A stretch of 64,000 nt of DNA, taken from the NCBI GenBank assembly GCA_032622095.1, contig CP136063.1, positions 7,171,814 to 7,235,813 of the forward strand, written 5' to 3'. How positions within the stretch are numbered: position 1 is the first letter of the stretch; every line of letters begins with the position of its first letter. The notes beneath the pieces are model-generated. The model searched no databases and was not told the origin of the DNA. It saw only the letters and a list, made by a program, of their open reading frames with translations. The position numbers were made by a program, and so were the translations under genes. This document shows, piece by piece, positions 21,257 to 62,490 of this stretch. This stretch comes from Siphonodentalium dalli (lineage: Eukaryota > Mollusca > Scaphopoda > Gadilida > Siphonodentaliidae).

Positions 21257-21354
21257 ATTACTTTTAATGTACCCTGCTCCGAGTTCGGAGCTGTCCATGT
21301 TATGCTGACCTCGGTCTTAGCTGCATTATTTGTGTGGGTGAAACCTCCGTTACC
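21257..21354 (-). CDS. FRRS1-like: FRRS1-like exon 3: Reeler domain, third segment
   Basis: The exon encodes residues 110-141 plus two bases. The acceptor CTTCCACAG precedes GGTAACGG and the donor AAT is followed by GTAAGT. The sequence contains GFTHTNN (113-119) and ITWTAP (127-132), the G-x-THT-x(n)-W-x-AP pattern that is diagnostic of Reeler domains. Exon 2 ends in phase 0 and exon 4 begins in phase 2, as required. Confidence 0.9.
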
Positions 21355-21410: not shown

Positions 21411-21811
21411 CAACCCGCTGACCATGTGACTAGTTCACACCGCTGACCATGTGACTAGTTCACCCCGTTGACAATGTGACTAGTTCACACCGCTGACCAT
21501 GTGACTAGTTCACACCGCTGACCATGTGACTAGTTCACCCCGTTGACAATGTGACTAGTTCACACCGCTGACCATGTGACTAGTTCACACCGCTGACCAT
21601 GTGACTAGTTCACCCCGTTGACAATGTGACTAGTTCACCCCGTTGACAATGTGACTAGTTCACACCGCTGACCATGTGACTAGTTCACCCCGCTGACCAT
21701 GTGACTAGTTCACACCGCTGACCATGTGACTAGTTCACCCCGCTGACCATGTGACTAGTTCACCCCGCTGACCATGTGACTATTTCACACCGCTGACCAT
21801 GTGACTAGTTC
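21411..21811. repeat. 25-bp minisatellite, 16 copies
   Basis: The unit is CTGACCATGTGACTAGTTCA then CACCG, with two interspersed variants (CACACCGCTGACC and CACCCCGTTGACA) that alternate and so mark past block duplications. It begins about 55 bp upstream of the exon 3 acceptor. Confidence 0.95.
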
Positions 21812-22069
21812 AGTCAGCTTGTAATATGCGTGTGCATGTATACGTGATTAGTTCAGTCAGCTTGTAATATGCGTGTGCATGTATACGTGATTAGTTCAGT
21901 CAGCTTGTGATATGCGTGTGCATGTATACGTGATTAGTTCAGTCAGCTTGTAATATGCGTGTGCATGTATACGTGATTAGTTCAGTCAGCTTGTAATATG
22001 CGTGTGCATGTATACGTGATTAGTTCAGTCAGCTTGTAATATGCGTGTGCATGTATACGTGATTAGTTC
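21811..22069. repeat. 43-bp minisatellite, 6 copies, abutting the 25-bp array
   Basis: The unit is CAGTCAGCTTGTAATATGCG then TGTGCATGTATACGTGATTAGTT. It shares the TGAYTAGTTCA string with the neighbouring 25-bp unit, with no gap between the arrays. One may have seeded the other. Confidence 0.95.
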
Positions 22070-22652
22070 ACCCTGCTGTTGAGCATCCTCAGTATTGATG
22101 GGTGGGTTCACCCCATTCGTACATGCAATATATATTCATAGTATTATGTGACTATAGCTCACCTCGCTTAACCTATGCATGTACTTGTATATGTGACTAA
22201 ATCATCCCGATTATACTATGCATGAATATTAATGTTTGACTACGTCATACCGCTTATACGTGTAAGAACATGCACGTGCATCTACTGATTTATGCTCAGT
22301 AAGTGCAAGCGCCAACAATAACGCGATTGTTATCACGAAATGACATCATATGCATCGGACTGCATTTTGCGATGTCCATAAATTCAAGAAATTTCTGGAA
22401 ATTCGTACCGAGTTTCGCTCATGTTCCGAATATAGGGCGTGCTGTTAAAGTGGGTCACATGCTCAGTTTAAAACATAGAGTTATCAAGCGGAGTATACGA
22501 TTGTTAAGATGCGACTGTCATGATTAATATATGGTGTCATTTTGGAAGTGTTTGTGAGATAACTATTCAAGCGTTTACATACAAATCTTAACGATTTTAA
22601 GTATAATCTTAGAGAGCGTTCATGACAATATTTAACTTTCGAAACTACGAGG

Positions 22653-26898: not shown

Positions 26899-27023
26899 GC
26901 ATGTCGGCTGGCCTATGGATCCGCTCATTGAGCCAATTACCTTCTCTGTCCCATCTGTCTTCCTCACCTCCACCAGAAAGCCGGCAAATGTGTTTGTGTT
27001 CGGTGGCTTTGCACGTAGAGTAA
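26899..27023 (-). CDS. FRRS1-like: FRRS1-like exon 2: Reeler domain, second segment
   Basis: The exon completes residue 68 and encodes 69-109. The acceptor is GCCATTCAG before TTACTC and the donor TGC then GTAAGT. The key motif is FAGFLVEVRKTDG (80-92), the F-x-GFL-x-x-AR core of Reeler domains, followed by VIGSMSG (96-102) and a terminal Cys109. Joined to exon 1 it gives YNPGQQIT-ITL, the expected PG-x-x-I-x-VTL strand. Confidence 0.9.
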
Positions 27024-27175
27024 CTGAATGGCGAGATTTTAAGACTGTACAATATTTATAATGATGATCACATCTCAAAGCTCCACAATGGAAGGGTTAT
27101 ATGTTTTAACTCGGTTTACTCGAATAAACATAACATACTTATAGACTAATAACTACTTCAAATTCATTGTACACA

Positions 27176-27177
<2 letters not shown>

Positions 27178-27247
<70 letters not shown>

Positions 27248-27250
27248 TTA
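27178..27250. repeat. (TA)n microsatellite
   Basis: About 60 bases of uninterrupted TA dinucleotides are followed by GTATATATTTA. It directly abuts the CTAG end of a Helitron-like element. Confidence 0.97.
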
Positions 27251-28241
27251 CTAGAAGGTGACCCGACTTCGTCCGGGCTTTGACCTTGAATTGACCATTT
27301 TGAAGGTCAAGGCCAGGTGGGGTCACGATTTGACCCGTGCAAAACACTCCCTGGAAACAATTACCACTAAGTATCAAATTGGCAGTTTTGCACCACCAAC
27401 ACCCCAAAAAATGGTGGAAATTGGCCCAGCGGATACCGGGAAATCGGCCCAGCGGATACCGAGATACCCTATGTATCAAATTTCGTCCGTAAAAATCCGC
27501 CAGTTTTACCCGATTTGATTTCCACTAAAGTATATAAACGCGCCTCATATACACAAGCTCATTAATTATCAAGCTTCAACGTAAAGATAAATTAGCATTG
27601 TGCGGTAAATTGTAACTAATTATAACTAATTATTTTCTCGCCGTCAAAGTTGAACAATGTCGATGGAATTGACGGCTTCCATTTCGGTAGATTCCATTTC
27701 GCAAGAGCGAAATAGCATTTCAGCTAAACGGATTATTGGATGAGATTCCAGACCCGCGGGTTAACTGTAAACGACTTGAGCCTATGCGTGGTGTGAATAT
27801 ACAAAAAATAAATATATCGACAATAGACCTAAGAATATCAGCTGTAACAAAATGTTATATATATCAGAAATAGTAAATGATATATTTTGGGATAGATACA
27901 CGACTCTTAATAGCCTGCAAATTGGCAATATATATTGTAAATGTTATAATTTTGGGATAAATACACGATGCGTAATTGCCTGCAAATTGCTTACGTTCGT
28001 CGACGTATGAATATAGAGTTATCCTCCCTGCATCGCAGTGCTAAATTTCGGCGTGATTAGCAATGCGGATCCAGATATATGAGTTTTGAAGGTCAAGGTC
28101 ACGCCGCACGGACAAATAGACGGGCACATGTTCGTTCCCGGGTCGAATTACGTGTCTGTACCAAGTTTGGTCGAAATCGGTCCAGCCGTGTTCGATTCCA
28201 TCGCGAACAAACACACACACACAGATCTTCCAAAATATATA
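27251..28241 (-). mobile_element. Helitron-like non-autonomous element, copy 1
   Basis: On the minus strand the 3' end is a hairpin (CCCGGACGAAGTCGGG), a short gap and CTAG (27251-27254), followed by T. That is the Helitron 3' signature: a hairpin, then CTRR, at an A/T target. The other end (about 28206-28241) reads TATATTTTGGAAGATCTGTG on the minus strand, like the 5' ends of the units at 60-62 kb. The body contains the module ACCAAGTTTGGTCGAAATCG near 28160. No Rep/helicase is encoded. The exact 5' TC is blurred by flanking TA repeats. Confidence 0.65.
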
Positions 28242-28262
28242 ATATATATATATATATATATA
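28242..28262. repeat. Short (TA)n between two Helitron-like copies
   Basis: About 20 bases of TA separate copy 1 from copy 2. This is probably part of the same target microsatellite as the tracts at 27178 and 29189. Confidence 0.9.
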
Positions 28263-29185
28263 CTAGAAGGTGACCCGACTTCGTCCGGGTTTGACCTTGA
28301 ATTGTCTATTTTGAAGGCCAAGGTCAAGTGGGGTCACGATTTGACCCGTCCAAAACACAGTGCCCGAACAAAAGTACCCGACAAAAGTACCCGTCGAAAT
28401 CCATCCGGTTTTACCCGATTTGACCTTGAATTGACCATTTTGAATGTCAGGTGGGGTCAAACACCAACACCAAAAATGGTGGAAATCGGCCCAGCGGATA
28501 CCGGGAAATCGGCCCAGTGGATACCGAGATACCCTATGCATCAAATTTCGTCCGTAAAAATCCGCCAGTTTAACCCGATTTGATTTCCACTCAAGTATAT
28601 AAACGCGCCTCATACACACACGCTCATTAATTATCAAGTTTCAACGTAAAGATAAATTACCATCGGTGCCCGAGATATCGCCAAGACGTCTGAAACAGTC
28701 GAATGCATCGGCCGGTTAAGCGTTAACGTGATCTAACGGTATGACCTCTAACGACGTCATAGAAGTTACGCATTGTTTTTATCCTGATGGAAGATAGTAC
28801 CACTTCTTCTTGATAATTGAGGCAGATAACTAAAACTGATACATACGCATTATGTATCGTTGGAAAGAGGAAACACGAAATATTCTCACAGTGTCATTAT
28901 TATGACTGGCATTTTATTATTCGCGCTGTTTCGAATCGATTTGTAAGCACCGAACTCAAATGAAAGTCACGTAACACAGCGTAAAAACAGATTTGACCTC
29001 AGCACGTGAAAAGTTGACATCGGATCTGAAAATCAATAGGCCTATGTTACTCCTGGCCCGAAAATACCCCCACATACCAAGTTTCATCGAAATCGGGTCG
29101 GCCGTTTTCGAGTTCATCGATTACACACACACACACTGTCAAACAAACAAACAAACAAACAAACAGATCTTCCAAAATATATAAT

Positions 29186-29188
<3 letters not shown>
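28263..29188 (-). mobile_element. Helitron-like non-autonomous element, copy 2
   Basis: This has the same orientation and 3' end as copy 1 (CTAG at 28263-28266, hairpin CCCGGACGAAGTCGGG). The 5' end TCTATTATATATTTTGGAAG is clear on the minus strand at 29169-29188. It shares about 350 bp with copy 1 at the 3' side and about 180 bp at the 5' side, but the middle differs. Near the 5' end are CA- and AAAC-type simple repeats and the module ACCAAGTTTCATCGAAATCG. Confidence 0.7.

Positions 29189-29266
<78 letters not shown>
29189..29266. repeat. (TA)n microsatellite
   Basis: About 75 bases of TA dinucleotides adjoin the 5' end of Helitron-like copy 2. Confidence 0.97.
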
Positions 29267-29267
<1 letters not shown>

Positions 29268-29483
29268 TGTTGTTTGATGCATGCGTACAGTTGTATATAA
29301 GAATAAATTGAAAGCATGGCTTAGAAAAACATTATTGTATTGTAACTAGGCCTTACACAGCTACTGCTGATCTTCAGGTTACACAATGTATAATATCATA
29401 ATGTATAATGAATATTAACGTCACTTCCGAATTTTGGTTTCATTGTGACGTCACTTCCCTGGATATTTATTCCAGTGATGGTT

Positions 29484-29905
29484 TTAAGTTTTTTTCTTCT
29501 CTGAATTTAGTTTCGGACGAAGTTTTTTTATCAACATTGTTTCCGTCCGAATTCTTTTCAATGGGTCCATTGATAGCATTTTGTATAATGGAAACACTGT
29601 GAATGAGCAACCGCCACAAATTTCCAGATGTTCGCTGAGATCAATTTGTCTCAGCTCTGGTTGTTTGATTTGTTGGCGGTGTATTCTCATGCGCTCACAC
29701 ACAGTGTTGCCCGTCTGTCCCACATAAAACTCATGGCATCCAGAACATATAATAATATAGATTAAGTTCCGTGATTTGCAGTCCATATCCGCATTGGGTT
29801 GAACTACTGTACCACTTTTAAACTTGAGTTGAGTACCAGTAACTATGTTTTTGCATGTACCGCATCTGGAATCTCTACACGTCCGAATTAGGTATGTGTG
29901 TATGA
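29484..29905 (-). pseudogene. Penelope-like element fragment: GIY-YIG endonuclease region
   Basis: The minus-strand open frame begins near 29905 without a start codon and ends at 29484. It opens with the Cys-rich CRDSRCGTCKN lead-in. The GIY-YIG core follows: NLIYIII (GIY-like), FYVGQTGN (YIG-like) and ERMRIHRQQI with the conserved Arg, and then a C-terminal ETMLIKKLRPKLN. In Penelope-like retroelements this domain follows the reverse transcriptase and nicks the target DNA. The reverse transcriptase part is missing, so this is a truncated copy in intron 1 of the FRRS1-like gene, on the same strand. A GIY-YIG domain from another element class is less likely given the CCHH-like spacing before it. 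Confidence 0.8.
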
Positions 29906-30980
29906 GATATATATATACACAACTATATTGTTATTATAATATAATTAATTTAAGGCTTGTAATCCTGTACAAATTGTATCATACAAATTACACGACATAT
30001 ATTGTTATATGTATTGATGACCAAGTTGTTCAAAAACCAATATGATCAAATATCTACTTTACACAAAATGGGTGTGAATGTGGTCCAATCGTGTACTTAA
30101 TGAGTAAACGAATGTTTTGCATACATCCTGAGAAAAATGGAATACATTTTAAACAACGAATTTATATCATGATATTGAGTTATAATATTAATTTCATAAT
30201 TTTAGATTCATACGCCCACATACTTTATAATGAAGAATACGGCAGTCGCAGATATTCCAGCCCTTTAACAACACATGTGAATATGTAGTGTGGCCCACTC
30301 AAGCACGAAGCGATCAAGTGTAATTAGGCCACAGTTTTAATATATATGTTGGTCAACTTTAACTTGGTTATGAACCGATAACCAAGAACTGACTTCAGCC
30401 AATAGTGACATGAACATTATCAAACATAGAACACTCTTTACGGGTAGTTGTCTTTTGATCTGAAAATAGTTACTAAATTGAAAGAATAAAGACAAATTAG
30501 GTATCCGCTCATGATTTTCTGTTAAATGAACTGCACTTTTGAAAAAGCAACATTTTACAGAAGTTCTTGGCACCGGAAAACAGCGAAATTTTAAATCGTG
30601 TTCATTGCCACAGTGGTGAATTAAATAAGTGATACTATCAAATTGCTCTCGTGTCTTTAATTGTAATTGCCATATGTTAACCATTGTACACAAGCGAATT
30701 TTTGTTTACTTCTTTTAAGATAACACAATTTAGTGAGAAAGTTTAGCGGTGGTGGATACCTCAAACCAGATACATCGATATACCATAACGTATCTTAAAT
30801 AAGCAGGGGCAAGTTTAAACAAAGTTATCTCACACAGTAATTAAGCATACATGCACTGGAGCAGCGGCCAATAGTTGTCGGGTACCCTTACCTTTGGTAG
30901 ATTAAGTTGAAACTAAATAAATGTTATCAGACTCAATCATGGCATCACTGGGGGGTCTGGAAGCATGCATACTAATGTCT
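29906..30980. other. Part of intron 1, unassigned
   Basis: Nothing convincing is seen. A 118-codon minus-strand frame at 30337-30693 has no recognisable motif. Confidence 0.4.
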
Positions 30981-30984
30981 TTAA

Positions 30985-31377
30985 CCCTTTACCCAACAAA
31001 CCGGCCAAAACCGGCCAAATAAAGATTCAACAGCCTAAAATATCTTCGGTCTGTCTCAATAGAACCATACACATATGGATATCATTGGAACCGGCTCCTT
31101 GACCACATTGTGATAGTTACAGGTACGCCCTGTGCCAATGCATTCTCTTATATATGCGAGTCGACCATAGGTCGCCTCGCATATATAAGAGAATGCATTG
31201 GCCTAAAAAAATAATCTTTTTTAACACTTTTTAACATTTTTTCTTACATTCTTTAACAATTTTATAATTTTTAATGTGTTAAGCCATTGCATTCTCTTAT
31301 ATATGCGAGGCGACCTATGGTCGACTCGCATATATACGAGAATGCATTGGCACAGGGCCGTTCTGTTGGGTAAAGGG
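30985..31377 (-). mobile_element. TTAA MITE, full-length copy A (393 bp)
   Basis: It is flanked by TTAA (30981-30984 and 31378-31381) with terminal inverted repeats CCCTTTACCCAACA. TTAA target duplications and CCCTTT-like ends point to mobilisation by a piggyBac-type transposase. Inside are two ~67-bp palindromes (about 31135-31202 and 31285-31352) with arms GCCAATGCATTCTCTTATAT, separated by an AT-rich spacer. The orientation is opposite to copies B and C. There is no coding capacity. Confidence 0.9.
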
Positions 31378-31436
31378 TTAACAACTCCAACGGTGTCCAC
31401 GGGGCCACTTTTCAGCACACGGTGCATCAATTCAGC

Positions 31437-32530
31437 TTGCTGATACTTACTTGACGACAGCCGGATTCCGTACGGTATCGACCCAGTCTGTTGATACTCA
31501 CTTGTGATCTGATGTCCCGGATTATACGTTGATGACGAGAGCTGGATTGCGTACGGTATCGACCCAGTCTGTTGATACTTACTTGTGATATGATGTCCCG
31601 GATTATACGTTTATGACGAGAGCCGGATTCCGTACGGTATCGACCCAGTCTGTTGATACTTACTTGTGATCTGATGTCCCGGATTATACGTTGATGACGA
31701 GAGCTGGATTTTGTACGGTATCGACCCAGTCTGTTGATACTTACTTGTGATCTGATGTCCCGGATTATACGTTGATGACGAGAGCTGGATTTTGTACGGT
31801 ATCGACCCAGTCTGTTGATACTTACTTGTGATCTGATGTCCCGGATTATACGTTGATGACGACAGCCGGATTTCGTACGGTATCGACCCAGTCTGTTGAT
31901 ACTTACTTGTGATCTGCTGTCCCGGATTATACGTTGATGACGACAGCCGGATTCCGTACGGTATCGACCCAGTCTGTTGATACTCACTTGTGATATGATG
32001 TCCCGGATTACACGTTGATGACGACAGCCGGATTCCGTACGGTATCGACCCAGTCTGTTGATACTTACTTGTGATATGATGTCCCGGATTATACGTTGAT
32101 GACGACAGCCGGATTCCGTACGGTATCGACCCAGTTGATACTTACTTGTGATCTGCTGTCCCGGATTATACGTTGATGACGAGAGCCGGATTTCGTACGG
32201 TATCGACCCAGTTGATACTTACTTGTGATCTGATGTCCCGGATTATACGTTGATGAAGACAGCCGGATTCCGTACGGTATCGACCCAGTCTGTTGATACT
32301 CACTTGTGATATGATGTCCCGGTTTATACGTTGATGACGAGAGCTGGATTGCGTACGGTATCGACCCAGTCTGTTGATACTTACTTGTGATCTGATGTCC
32401 CGGATTATACGTTGATGACGACAGCTGGATTGCGTACGGTATCGACCCAGTTGATACTTACTTGTGATCTGCTGTCCCGGGTTGTACGTTGATGAAGACA
32501 GCTGAATTTCGTATGGTATCGGGTCAGTTT
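31437..32530 (-). repeat. 81-bp minisatellite made from the 3' end of exon 1 with its splice donor
   Basis: About 13 units of 81 bp (three of 77 bp) follow the real exon end. On the minus strand each unit reproduces the exon-1 sequence for PY-x-I-x-LSSSTYNPG-x-QIT and then the donor, GTAAGT in most units and GTGAGT at about 31491, 31977 and 32293. In the exon frame the units read SIPYGIRLSSSTYNPGHQIT without stops, with a 27-residue period. The exon itself is the most diverged member (PIPYEIQLSSSTYNPGQQIT). Because the first step is 77 bp, use of the next donors would break the frame into exon 2, and a stop is met after the second 77-bp step. Confidence 0.93.
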
Positions 32531-32663
32531 GTGGTACTCCGTGATAATAGACATTCGGGATCATCGTTGAACACGCACCCGAAGGAGCACCAGATGGGTT
32601 ACCAATTGCGTCGCGTATACCCATTACGAGCATCAGCACACACAGCAGTGATGAATGCACCAT
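32462..32663 (-). CDS. FRRS1-like: FRRS1-like exon 1: signal peptide and start of Reeler domain
   Basis: The start ATG at 32661-32663 has a good context (AAATATGG). Residues 1-21 form a signal peptide (MVHSSLLCVLMLVMG then IRDAIG). The Reeler domain opens with NPSGAPSGACSTMIPN, in which the P-x-G then C-x-x-M-x-P pattern is typical, and continues to YNPGQQIT (60-67). The donor is ACAA then GTAAGTAT, phase 1. The protein should enter the secretory pathway. Upstream 5' UTR structure is not resolved; no TATA box was identified. The last ~75 nt of this exon are the parent of the 81-bp array. Confidence 0.93.
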
Positions 32664-32779
32664 ATTTAGGCTACCGACGTCAGCTACACCTGGAGTATCA
32701 ACAAAACTACATGACTGACATACAAGCAGTGTATTGGGCTAAAACAAGTATGTCCTAACACACATTGATAGTAAATACA

Positions 32780-34701: not shown

Positions 34702-37700
34702 AACACATGGACTGACTGTCCACATACACTGAGGTACCACATGGACTGACTGTCCACATACACTGAGGTACCACATGGACTGACTGTCCACACACACTGA
34801 GGTACCACACGGACTGACTGTCCACACACAATGAGGTAACACATGGACTGACTGTCCACACATACTGATGTAATACATGGCCTGACTAGCCACACACACT
34901 GATGTAACACGTGGCCTGACTGTCCACATACACTGAGGTAACACATGGACTGACTGTCCACACACACTGAGGTAACACATGGACTGACTGTCCACACACA
35001 CTGAGATAACACATGGGCTGACTGTCCACAGACACTGAGGTAACACATGGACTGACTGTCCACACACACTGAGGTACCACATGGACTGACTGTCCACACA
35101 CACTGAGGTACCACAAGTACTGACTGTCCACACACACTGATGTAACACATAGACTGACTGTGCACACACACTGAGGTAACACATGGCCTGACTGTACACA
35201 CACACTGAGGTACCACACGGACTGACTGTCCACACACACTGAGGTAACACATGGACTGACTGTCCACATACACTGAGGTAACACATGGACTGACTGTGTA
35301 CACACACTGAGGTAACACATGGACTGACTGTCCACATACACTGAGGTAACACATGGACTGACTGTACACACACACTGAGGTACCACATGGACTGACTGTC
35401 CACACACACTGAGATAACACATGGACTGACTGTCCACATACACTGAGGTAACACATGGTCTGACTGTCCACACACACTGAGGTAACGCATGGACTGACTG
35501 TCCACACACACTGAGGTACCACATGGACTGACTGACCACACACACTGAGGTAACACATGGGCTGACTGTCCACACACACTGATGTAACACATGGACTGAC
35601 TGTGCACACACACTGAGGTAACACATGGTCTGACTGTCCACACACACTGATGTAACGCATGGACTGACTGTCCACACACACTGAGGTAATACATGGACTG
35701 ACTGTCCACACACACTGATGTAACACATTTACTGACTGTCCACACACACTGAGGTAACACATGTACTGACTGTCCACACACACTGAGGTAACACATGGAC
35801 TGACTGTCCACACACACTGATGTAACACATGGACTGACTGTCCACACACACTGAGGTAACACATGGACTGACTGTCCACACACACTGAGGTAGCACATGG
35901 ACTGACTGTCCACACACACTGAGGTAACACATGGACTGACTGTCCACACACACTGAGGTACCACATGGACTGACTGTCCACACATACTGAGGTACCACAT
36001 GGACTGACTGTCCACACATACTGATGTAATGCATGGACTGACTGTCCACACACACTGAGGTACCACATGGACTGACTGTCCACACATACCGAGGTACCAC
36101 ATGGACTGACTGTCCACACATACTGATGTAACACATGGCCTGATTGTCCACATACACTGAGGTAACACATGGACTGACTGTCCACACACACTGATGTAAT
36201 ACATGGACTGACTGTCCACACACACTGATGTAACACATTTACTGACTGTCCACACACACTGAGGTAACACATGTACTGACTGTCCACACAAACTGAGGTA
36301 ACACATGGACTGACTGTCCACACACACGGATGTAACACATGGACTGACTGTCCACACACACTGAGGTAACACATGGACTGACTGTCCACACACACTGAGG
36401 TAACACGTGGACTGACTGTCCACACACACTGAGGTAACACATGGACTGACTGTCCACACATACTGAGGTACCACATGGACTGACTGTCCACACATACTGA
36501 GGTAACACATGGACTGACTGTCCACACACACTGAGGTAACACATGAACTGACTGTCCACACACACTGAGGTAACACATGAACTGACTGTCCACGCACACT
36601 GATGTAACACATGGCCTGACTGGCCACACACACTGATGTAACACATGGCCTGACTGTCCACATACACAGAGGTAACACATGGACTGACTGTCCACACACA
36701 CACTGAGGTAACACATGGACTGACTGTCCACACACACTGAGGTACCACATCGACTGACTGTCCACACACACTGATGCAACACATGGACTGACTGTCCACT
36801 CACACTGAGGTAACACATAGACTGATTGTCCACACACACTGAGGTATCACATGAACTGACTGCCCACACACACTGAGGTAACACATGAACTGACTGTCCA
36901 CACACACTGATGTAACACATGGACTGACTGTCCACACACACTGAGGTAACACATGGACTGACTGTCCACACACACTGAGGTAACACATGTACTGACTGTG
37001 CACACACACTGATGTAACACATGGACTGACTGTCCAAACACACTGAGGTAACACATGGACTGACTGTCCACACACACTGAGGTAACACGTGGACTGACTG
37101 TCCACACACACTGAGGTAACACATGGACTGACTGTCCACACATACTGAGGTACCACATGGACTGACTGTCCACACATACTGAGGTAACACATATACTGAC
37201 TGTCCACACACACTGAGGTAACACATGGACTGACTGTCCACACACACTGAGGTAACACATGAACTGACTGTCCACACACACTGAGGTAACACATGAACTG
37301 ACTGTCCACGCACACTGATGTAACACATGGCCTGACTGGCCACACACACTGATGTAACACATGGCCTGACTGTCCACATACACAGAGGTAACACATGGAC
37401 TGACTGTCCACACACACACTGAGGTAACACATGGACTGACTGTCCACACACACTGAGGTACCACATCGACTGACTGTCCACACACACTGAGGTATCACAT
37501 GGACTGACTGTCCACATACACAGAGGTAACACATGGACTGACTGTCCACACACACACTGATGCAACACATGGACTGACTGTCCACTCACACTGAGGTAAC
37601 ACATAGACTGATTGTCCACACACACTGAGGTATCACATGAACTGACTGCCCACACACACTGAGGTAACACATGAACTGACTGTCCACACACACTGATGTA

Positions 37701-38065
37701 ACACATGGACTGACTGTCCACACACACTGAGGTAACACATGGACTGACTGTCCACACACACTGAGGTAACACATGTACTGACTGTGCACACAAACTGAGG
37801 TACCACTGGACTGACTGTCCACACACACTGAGGTAACACATGGACTGACTGTCCACACACACTGAGGTAACACATGGGCTGACTGTCCACACACACCGAG
37901 GTACCACATGGACTGGCTGTCCACACACACTGATGTAACACATGGGCTGACTGTCCACACACACTGAGGTAACACGTGGACTGACTGTCCACACACACTG
38001 AGGTACCACATGGCCTGACTGTCCACACACACTGAGGTACCACACGGACTGACTGTCCACACACG
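34702..38065. repeat. 34-bp satellite array, about 99 copies
   Basis: The unit is TGTCCACACACACTGAGGTA then ACACATGGACTGAC. Variants (GATG for GAGG, TACC for TAAC, CATA for CACA) are arranged in blocks, showing higher-order duplications; for example the run near 36590 recurs about 714 bp (21 units) later near 37305. The minus strand has no stop codons in any phase of most units. As 34 is not a multiple of three, all three minus frames stay open for kilobases, producing a 1153-codon frame rich in Cys, Val and Ser. I regard this as a by-product of the repeat. No splice, promoter or domain evidence supports a protein. Confidence 0.97.
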
Positions 38066-60348: not shown

Positions 60349-60870
60349 TCTCATATATATTTTGAAGACCTCTGTCTGTATGTTTGTCTGTATGTCTGTA
60401 TGTTTGTCTGTATGTTTGTCATTAATACAAATTTACGATTCTCGACCGATCGGGACGAAACTTGGTACGTGTGTGTAGTTTGACCAGGCGGTGGACGTTG
60501 TCGTATTGGCGAGCCCGTGTGGCGCCCGCTTCGCGCATGCGCAGACCATATCTCGGAAACGGGTGGAGCTATCGACTTGAAATTTGGTATGTGGATGTAT
60601 CTTGCCACGGATACGAATTTTATCGGGTCGTCGAGCCCATGCGACGCCAGCGTCGCGCATGCGCAGACGAGATCTCGGAAACGGGTGGAGCTATCGACTT
60701 GAAATTTGGTATGTGAATGTATCTTGCCCCGGATACGAATTTTATCGGGTCGCCGAGTCCGTGTGACGCCAGCTTCGCGCATGCGCAGACCAGATCTCGG
60801 AAACGGGTAGAGCTATCGACTTGAAATTTGGTTTTTGAATAGCCCGGACAACGTCGGGCTCATCGGCTAG
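60349..60870 (+). mobile_element. Helitron-like unit 1 (522 bp)
   Basis: It starts TCTCATATATATTTTGAAG followed by GTCT/GTTT simple repeats. It ends with the hairpin AGCCCGGACAACGTCGGGCT, CATCGG and CTAG (60867-60870), which fits the Helitron rule of 5' TC, 3' hairpin and CTRR at an A/T target. The body contains CGGGACGAAACTTGGTACGT and about two to three copies of a 122-bp sub-repeat with GAAATTTGGTATGTG, GGATACGAATTTTATCGGGT and CTTCGCGCATGCGCAGAC. It has no Rep/helicase and so is non-autonomous. Confidence 0.8.
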
Positions 60871-61392
60871 TCTCATATATATTTTGAAGACCTCTGTCTG
60901 TATGTTTGTCTGTCTGTCTGTATGTTTGTCTGTATGTTTGTCATTAATACAAATCTACGATTCTCGACCGATCGGGGCGAAACTTGGTACGTGTGTGTAG
61001 ATTGACCAGGCGGTGGACGTTGTCGTATTGGCGAGCCCGTGTTGCGCCCGCTTCGCGCATGCGCTGACCAGATCTCGGAAACGGGTTGAGCTATCGACTT
61101 GAAATTTGGTATGTGAATGTATCTTGCCCCGGATACGAATTTTATCGGGTCGTCGAGCCCGTGAGACGCCAGCTTCGCGCATGCGCAGACGATATCTCGG
61201 AAACGGGTGGAGCTATCGACTTGAAATTTGGTATGTGAATGTATCTTGCCCCGGATACGAATTTTATCGGGTCGCCGAGTCCGTGCGACGCCAGCTTCGC
61301 GCATGCGCAGACCAGATCTAGGAAACGGGTAGAGCTATCGACTTGAAATTTGGTTTTTGAATAACCCGGACAACGTCGGGCTCATCGGCTAG
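60871..61392 (+). mobile_element. Helitron-like unit 2 (522 bp)
   Basis: This unit joins unit 1 seamlessly as CTAG then TCTC. It has the same length and sub-repeat number as unit 1 and is nearly identical in sequence. It ends CTAG at 61389-61392. Confidence 0.8.
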
Positions 61393-61810
61393 TCTCATAT
61401 ATATTTTGAAGACCTCTGTCTGTTTGTCTGTATGTCTGTCTGTATGTTTGTCATTAATACGAATCTACGATTCTCGACCGATCGGGACGAAACTTGGTAC
61501 GTGTGTGTAGTTTGACCGGGCGGTGGACGTTGTCGTATTGGCGAGCATGTGCGGCGCCGCTTCGCGCATGCGCAGACGAGATCTCGGAAACGGGTGGAGC
61601 TATCGACTTGAAATTTGCTATGTGAATGTATCTTGCCCCGGATACGAATTTTATCGGGTCGCCGAGCCCGTGCGACGCCAGCTTCGCGCATGCGCAGACA
61701 AGATCTCGGAAACGGGTAGAGCTATCAACTTGAAATTTCGGGTTGGGTAGAGCTATCGACTTGAAATTTGGTTTTTGAATAGCCCGGACAACGTCGGGCT
61801 CATCGGCTAG
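61393..61810 (+). mobile_element. Helitron-like unit 3 (418 bp)
   Basis: The termini match those of units 1 and 2, with a seamless CTAG/TCTC junction. It is shorter by about one 122-bp sub-repeat and carries a small internal rearrangement near 61735 (ATTTCGGGTTGGGTAGAGC). It ends CTAG at 61807-61810. Confidence 0.8.
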
Positions 61811-62490
61811 TCTCATATATATTTTGAAGACCTCTGTCTGTTTGTCTGTCTGTTTGTCTGTTTCATTGTTTGTCATTTATACAAATCTACGATTCTCGAC
61901 CGATCGGGACGAAACTTGGTACGTGTGTGTAGTTTGACCAGGCGGTGGACGTTGTCGTATTGGCGAGTCCATGCGGCGCCCGCTTCGCGCATGCGCAGAT
62001 GAGATATCGGAAACAGGTGGAGCTATCGACTTGAAATTTGCTATGTGAATGTATCTTGCCCCGGATACGAATTTTATCGGGTCGCCGATCCCGTGCGACG
62101 CCAGCTTCGCGCATGCGCAGACCAGATATCGGAGACGGGTGGAGCTATCGACTTGAAATTTGGTATGTGAATGTATCTTGCCCCGGATACGAATTTTATC
62201 GGGTCGCCGAGCCCGTGCGACGCCATCTTCGCGCATGCGAAGACCAGATCTCGGAAACGGGTGGAGCTATCGACTTGAAATTTGGTATGTGAATGTATCT
62301 TGCCCCGGATACGAACTTTATCGGGTCGCCGAGACCGTGCGACGCCAGCTTTGCGCATGCGCAGATCAGATCTCGGAAACGGGTGAAGCTATCGACTTGA
62401 AATGTGTTTTTTGAATAGCCCGGACAACGTCGGGATGGGTAGAGCTATCGACTTTGAAATTTGGTTTTTGAATAGCCCGGACAACACGTC
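61811..62490 (+). mobile_element. Helitron-like unit 4, longest, with a broken 3' end
   Basis: It starts TCTCATATATATTTTGAAG and has about four 122-bp sub-repeats. The 3' hairpin appears twice (about 62420-62435 and 62480-62490) but the CATCGGCTAG ending is missing. The right boundary has been lost or rearranged. Confidence 0.72.

What the first reader, a model, noticed from the sequence alone, without database searches (positions are those of the whole stretch)
31437..32530. A minisatellite that copies an exon end together with its 5' splice site about 13 times
The 81-bp units after exon 1 each repeat the last ~75 coding bases of the exon plus a good donor (GTAAGT or GTGAGT). Seen directly: 14 donor-like sites in a row, units open in the exon frame, and three 77-bp units that shift the frame. 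Inference: only the most upstream donor keeps the Reeler domain in frame; use of others should give frameshifted, decay-prone transcripts. The exon is the most diverged member, suggesting selection on it while the array homogenises. I know of no described family with this arrangement, but could not search.
Basis: partly seen in the sequence, partly recalled or inferred. Interest (0 to 1): 0.85.

Follow-up and report, generated by a model that had tools for sequence, protein, structure and literature searches.

The report
Repeated exon end with splice donors
In this animal genome a gene for a Reeler-domain protein carries, right after its first coding exon, thirteen tandem copies of the exon's own end with its "cut here" splicing signal, a rare but previously described kind of arrangement that recurs in at least three other genes of this genome and offers a natural test of how cells choose among identical splice sites.

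Summary
On the minus strand, coding exon 1 (32663-32462) of a Reeler-domain gene is followed by 13 tandem units (9 of 81 bp, 3 of 77 bp, 1 truncated to 51 bp). Each unit copies about 69 nt of exon end plus about 12 nt of intron start, giving 14 donors CAA|GTRAGT. Exons 2 (27023-26899) and 3 (21354-21257) were located; exons 1-3 together score 79 bits for Reeler. Only donor 1 keeps this frame: donors 2-4 lead to a stop in exon 2, donors 5-14 to a stop inside the array. Three paralogues have exon 1 and a donor at the same position but no array. The copies differ among themselves without coding constraint; the exon is the outlier. The array is unique in the 2.2-Gb genome.

New here: the same architecture recurs in this genome, supported by homology in UFL1, an F-type lectin and a WD40 (PAK1IP1-like) gene. 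Best explanation: minisatellites seeded across donors and tolerated because the original exon and donor stay upstream. Use of the extra donors is untested (no RNA).

The parts
32462..32663 (-). coding exon 1 (ATG at 32663; 202 nt; signal-like N-terminus and Reeler positions 1-35), ends CAGATCACAA|GTAAGT
   Evidence: end position shared with three paralogues
32689..32691 (-). possible acceptor (CTCCAG|GTGTAG) upstream of the ATG, so that 'exon 1' may be preceded by a 5'UTR intron or a leader acceptor (inference)
   Evidence: CCAGGTG[TC]AGCTGACGTCGGTAG is strongly conserved with the paralogue
31450..32461 (-). minisatellite: 13 units of 81/77/51 bp downstream of the exon, each = about 12 nt intron start + about 69 nt exon-end copy; donors at 32461, 32384, 32303, 32222, 32145, 32068, 31987, 31906, 31825, 31744, 31663, 31582, 31501, 31450
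26899..27023 (-). coding exon 2 (Reeler), acceptor GCCATTCAG|TT, donor TGC|GTAAGT
   Evidence: 80% identical to paralogue exon 2
21257..21354 (-). coding exon 3 (Reeler), acceptor TTCCACAG|GGT, donor AT|GTAAGT
   Evidence: exons 1-3 give Pfam Reeler 79 bits, E=6.1e-22
27024..32461 (-). intron 1 (5.4 kb) containing the array
31130..31381 (.). inverted-repeat (MITE-like) element next to the array, many copies genome-wide; outer borders approximate

Best explanation
A short tandem duplication that spanned the 5' splice site of coding exon 1 (about 69 nt of exon end + donor + about 12 nt of intron) grew into a minisatellite after this Reeler gene separated from its paralogues. Because the original exon end and donor stay at the upstream edge, the added copies lie inside intron 1 and leave the mRNA unchanged as long as the first donor is used: a duplication across a donor is self-healing. 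The 14 donors are nearly identical in strength, so the first must be favoured by position (first transcribed, nearest the upstream exon boundary). The array then drifts and homogenises as intron sequence. Leaky use of donors 2-14 would give only frameshifted or prematurely terminated transcripts. The same process has hit other genes of this minisatellite-rich genome (UFL1, an F-type lectin, a WD40 gene). Shown: anatomy, frames, paralogues without array, neutral divergence of units, recurrence. Inferred: donor-1 use, decay of other products, mechanism of expansion.
For: Array and donors. Gene model: exons 1-3 join in phase with canonical sites and give Reeler 79 bits. All 14 spliced forms computed: only donor 1 keeps frame. 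Three paralogues at C3:93.30, 93.41, 93.57 Mb share the exon 1 end and GTAAGT at the same position, with an intron of 4.7 kb in the one measured and no array. Many Reeler hits elsewhere in the genome begin at profile position 34-36, i.e. the intron position is old. Units differ from their consensus by 7 synonymous, 22 non-synonymous and 1 stop change over 16 S and 44 N sites, i.e. no coding constraint; three units carry a 4-bp deletion. Array sequence unique in the genome. 20% of the window is tandem repeat. Recurrence: UFL1 exon C1:47045936-47045856 ends at the first donor of a 72-bp donor array and raises the UFL1 Pfam score from 38.7 to 66.4 bits, colinear; F-type lectin exon at C1:8417 kb, hit to FBP32 E=1.1e-7, followed by a 38-bp donor array; WD40 exon at C1:148 kb followed by a 73-bp donor array of about 100 copies.
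Against: No RNA evidence. With equal donors, a proximity rule (nearest the acceptor) could favour downstream copies. Exon 1 as a whole is only weakly constrained against the paralogue (dN 0.35, dS 0.43; exons 1-3 dN 0.26, dS 0.41), so a decaying gene is not excluded. Exon and array founder differ about as much (15%) as exon and paralogue (17%), so the array is old or was re-amplified from one diverged unit; seeding from this very exon is inferred. Other gene cases were found by searching for donor motifs, so the sample is selected.
Confidence: 0.75

Rival explanations
1. The array is a regulated splicing switch: a stochastic or tissue-controlled share of transcripts uses donors 2-14 and is destroyed by nonsense-mediated decay, so copy number tunes protein output (a decoy-donor rheostat).
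For: All 14 donors are intact and near-identical; every alternative gives a premature stop; in human IFI6 downstream repeat units are really used as donors (PMC4526556).
Against: Donor retention is expected from homogenisation alone: variable sites are not clearly rarer around the donor (1 of about 17) than in the rest (10 of 60). No array in three paralogues. Similar arrays occur in unrelated genes with other unit sizes, as mutation alone would give.
Confidence: 0.15
2. The copies are exonic: the units are translated as a 27-residue repeat (TGSIPYGIRLSSSTYNPGHHITSKYQQ and variants).
For: 81 = 3 x 27 and 11 of 12 full units are open in the exon frame.
Against: First unit after the exon is 77 bp and shifts frame; stop at codon 166 when reading through; three 77-bp units; a stop in u11; neutral pattern of changes; array units in other genes are 73, 38 and 76 bp.
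Confidence: 0.03
3. The array supplies new introns or cassette exons (tandem-duplication intron gain), each unit acting as a 69-nt exon.
For: CAG triplets occur in each unit; 81-12 = 69 is a multiple of 3; tandem duplication is a known route to introns (PMC4974935).
Against: No pyrimidine-rich acceptor in the units: 0.30-0.50 pyrimidine before internal AGs against 0.62 before the exon 2 acceptor.
Confidence: 0.03
4. Assembly artefact: one unit stuttered by the assembler.
For: Two adjacent units are identical.
Against: Eleven of the twelve full unit sequences are distinct, with two length classes and a truncated end; 1.1 kb is short for long reads; similar arrays exist in many places.
Confidence: 0.03

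Closest known systems
[quoted passage not shown] cited in PMC2572611 and PMC4526556)
   Same: A minisatellite lies at an exon end and repeats a splice donor; PMC4526556 states that two downstream repeat units are used as donors, giving three mRNA species.
   Different: The IFI6 unit is 12 bp (from my own knowledge; the 1995 paper is not held), so it repeats little more than the donor; here the unit is 81 bp and repeats about 69 nt of coding exon. Use of extra donors is shown there, unknown here.
Internal tandem repeats at exon-intron boundaries of human duplicated genes (De Grassi and Ciccarelli 2009, PMC2812944)
   Same: Minisatellites spanning exon-intron boundaries whose copy number differs between paralogues (27 intron modifications); here 13 copies against none in three paralogues.
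   Different: There mean unit 30 bp x 4 copies and new introns or retained repeats with transcript evidence; here a longer array, no acceptor and no RNA data.
Intron gain by tandem genomic duplication (e.g. PMC4974935; Zhuo et al. 2007, title only)
   Same: Starts from a tandem duplication that includes splice-site sequence.
   Different: Needs a usable acceptor as well; none is seen in the units here.

Membership tests
Minisatellite providing multiple splice donors (IFI6 type) | array begins within the end of an exon | tested here: met
   exon tail 32530-32462 aligns as the first member of the array
Minisatellite providing multiple splice donors (IFI6 type) | each unit carries a donor-consensus sequence | tested here: met
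   14 of 14 CAA|GTRAGT
Minisatellite providing multiple splice donors (IFI6 type) | more than one of the repeated donors is used in mRNA | not testable with these tools
   no transcript data
Boundary ITR of paralogous genes (De Grassi and Ciccarelli) | repeat spans an exon-intron boundary and varies between paralogues | tested here: met
   present in the window gene, absent at the same boundary in three paralogues
Tandem-duplication intron gain | unit contains a usable acceptor | tested here: not met
   internal AGs lack a pyrimidine tract
Reeler domain protein (host gene) | Pfam PF02014 above gathering score | tested here: met
   79 bits against cut-off 21, positions 1-115 of 131; last exon not located

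The most novel reading that the evidence does not exclude
In this genome minisatellites are repeatedly seeded across 5' splice sites, so that dozens or more genes, including conserved single-copy ones, carry serial near-identical copies of their exon end and donor in the following intron; splicing tolerates this because the upstream-most donor wins by position.
Probability: 0.5. Interest if true: 0.65.

Novelty: new member of a known kind. Interest (0 to 1): 0.5.

Why it matters
Fourteen near-identical donors with near-identical flanks, in one intron, differ mainly in position: a natural experiment on splice-site choice that does not need a minigene. Finding the same layout in UFL1, an F-type lectin and a WD40 gene suggests a general tolerance rule: a tandem duplication across a donor is hidden by splicing. 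It would also warn gene annotators, because predictors may extend exons into such arrays or pick the wrong donor.

Tried and rejected
RNA folding of two units: no stability beyond shuffles (z = 0.24), so no hairpin masking of donors is proposed. Adjacent-unit similarity: not significant (p = 0.19). Dispersed satellite or transposon origin of the unit: rejected, array unique in the genome. Open-frame length as a test for other exon-end arrays: rejected, 30% of random window sites have 44 or more open codons, so L082, L054 and L084 stay candidates only. Counts of donor-bearing arrays (5427/4423/5366 places against 3244/1898/3334 for the reversed motif) are places, not arrays, and are not read as enrichment; an acceptor pattern gave a similar ratio (1063 against 449). 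Papers not held: Turri 1995, Zhuo 2007. The host species could not be named; no related eukaryote genome is held, so orthologues were not compared.

Full report
Observation. Tandem Repeats Finder reports 31452-32521, period 81, 13.4 copies, 93% matches. Read on the minus strand, the coding exon ends at 32462 and the first donor G is at 32461; thirteen further donors follow at spacings 77, 81, 81, 77, 77, 81 (seven times) and 51, all in the context CAA|GTRAGTAT. Outside the array the whole minus strand has only 20 GTRAGT and the plus strand 18. Of the other arrays in the window with four or more copies, all have none except one of 99 units with two. The regular donors therefore result from copying the junction.

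Gene model. I located exon 2 at 27023-26899 and exon 3 at 21354-21257 by comparison with paralogues. Joined in phase, exons 1-3 give Reeler at 79 bits, E = 6.1e-22. A conserved CCAG|GTGTAGCTGACG upstream of the ATG suggests an acceptor, so this may not be the first exon of the transcript (inference).

Consequences of each donor. I built all 14 spliced forms. Donor 1 gives the open Reeler frame. Donors 2, 3 and 4 add 77, 158 and 239 nt, shift the frame and stop in exon 2. Donors 5-14 meet a stop at codon 166 inside the array; donors 6-14 add a multiple of three but still carry that stop.

Origin and evolution. A genome-wide DNA search finds this array nowhere else in 2.23 Gb, but exon 1 has three relatives at C3:93.30, 93.41 and 93.57 Mb (73% identity). 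They end exon 1 at the same position with GTAAGT and have no array. Each unit is about 69 nt of exon end plus 12 nt of intron start. Over 60 aligned coding nt the exon differs from units by 9.2 sites on average, units from each other by 3.5, and the exon from the paralogue by 10. Changes among units are 7 synonymous, 22 non-synonymous and one stop over 16 and 44 sites, as expected without coding constraint. Using the paralogue as outgroup, the two exon-specific changes are synonymous while three of four array-fixed changes alter the residue; this agrees with selection on the exon but the numbers are too small to prove it. The gene as a whole is only moderately constrained (dN 0.26, dS 0.41 over exons 1-3).

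Recurrence in the genome. I searched for three donor motifs at regular spacing. Such places are common, and reading the upstream flanks of twelve arrays on C1 showed several whose first donor closes a coding exon. Three are supported by homology. (i) UFL1: exon C1:47045936-47045856 follows the exon at 47046643-47046771; joined, they raise Pfam UFL1 from 38.7 to 66.4 bits, colinear 30-97, and other UFL1 exons lie at C1:47.059-47.065 Mb on the same strand. The next sequence is a 72-bp donor array of about five units. (ii) An F-type lectin exon at C1:8417 kb matches FBP32 at E = 1.1e-7 and is followed by a 38-bp array, each unit with a GTGAGT donor. (iii) A WD40 exon near C1:148 kb joins in phase to an upstream exon with WD40 matches (best E 9.1e-10; PAK1IP1-like by my own knowledge), followed by about 100 units of 73 bp. 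Others (L082 with at least 17 donors, L054, L084) are candidates only, since open-frame length alone does not discriminate. The selection on donor motifs means that these numbers do not give a frequency.

Mechanism. A tandem duplication that spans a donor leaves the original exon end and donor at its upstream edge. All added copies fall into the intron. So long as the first donor is used, protein and mRNA do not change, and the array may grow by slippage or unequal exchange. This makes exon ends at donors a place where minisatellites can reach into coding sequence without harm. It explains why units need not be multiples of three (77, 73, 38, 76), why all copies keep the donor (homogenisation), and why the exon is the outlier. 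The unknown is why the first donor should win, as the others are equal in sequence; position is the only difference left. Whether a leak exists, and whether it matters, cannot be settled without RNA.

Known precedents. [quoted passage not shown] PMC4526556 states that two downstream repeat units serve as donors, giving three mRNA species. De Grassi and Ciccarelli (PMC2812944) list 27 intron modifications by tandem repeats at exon-intron boundaries of human duplicated genes. So the kind is known. What is added is a long-unit case with 14 serial donors, shown to be absent from paralogues, and its recurrence in at least four genes of one genome.

Verdict. The recurrence is the more interesting lead.

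Noticed in passing
window 21801-22070: A 43-bp tandem repeat in intron 2 of the same gene is shared with the paralogues (44-bp repeat at the same place), so it predates the duplication, unlike the 81-bp array.
   Followed up: partly
window 31130-31381: Inverted-repeat (MITE-like) element with many 96-98% identical copies genome-wide, about 70 bp from the end of the array.
   Followed up: partly
L082 / G000:C1:14499466-14500800: Donor array of 99- and 46-bp units with at least 17 GTAAGT; the first 99-bp units stay open in one frame (33-residue repeat), so this one might be read through as protein.
   Followed up: partly
G000:C1:30890557-30890771: 69-bp tandem units of the form TTTTCAG, about 54 nt open frame, GTATGT, looking like a repeated mini-exon with both splice sites.
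   Followed up: no
window 34702-38064: 34-bp repeat, 98.8 copies, open as one frame of 1155 codons on the minus strand; probably a chance open frame of a repeat.
   Followed up: no
window 60510-62403: Compound tandem repeats with 122- and 423-bp periods.
   Followed up: no
G000:C1:5917950-5922710 and 6326443-6327703: The same 55-bp donor-bearing repeat occurs as two large arrays about 0.4 Mb apart.
   Followed up: no
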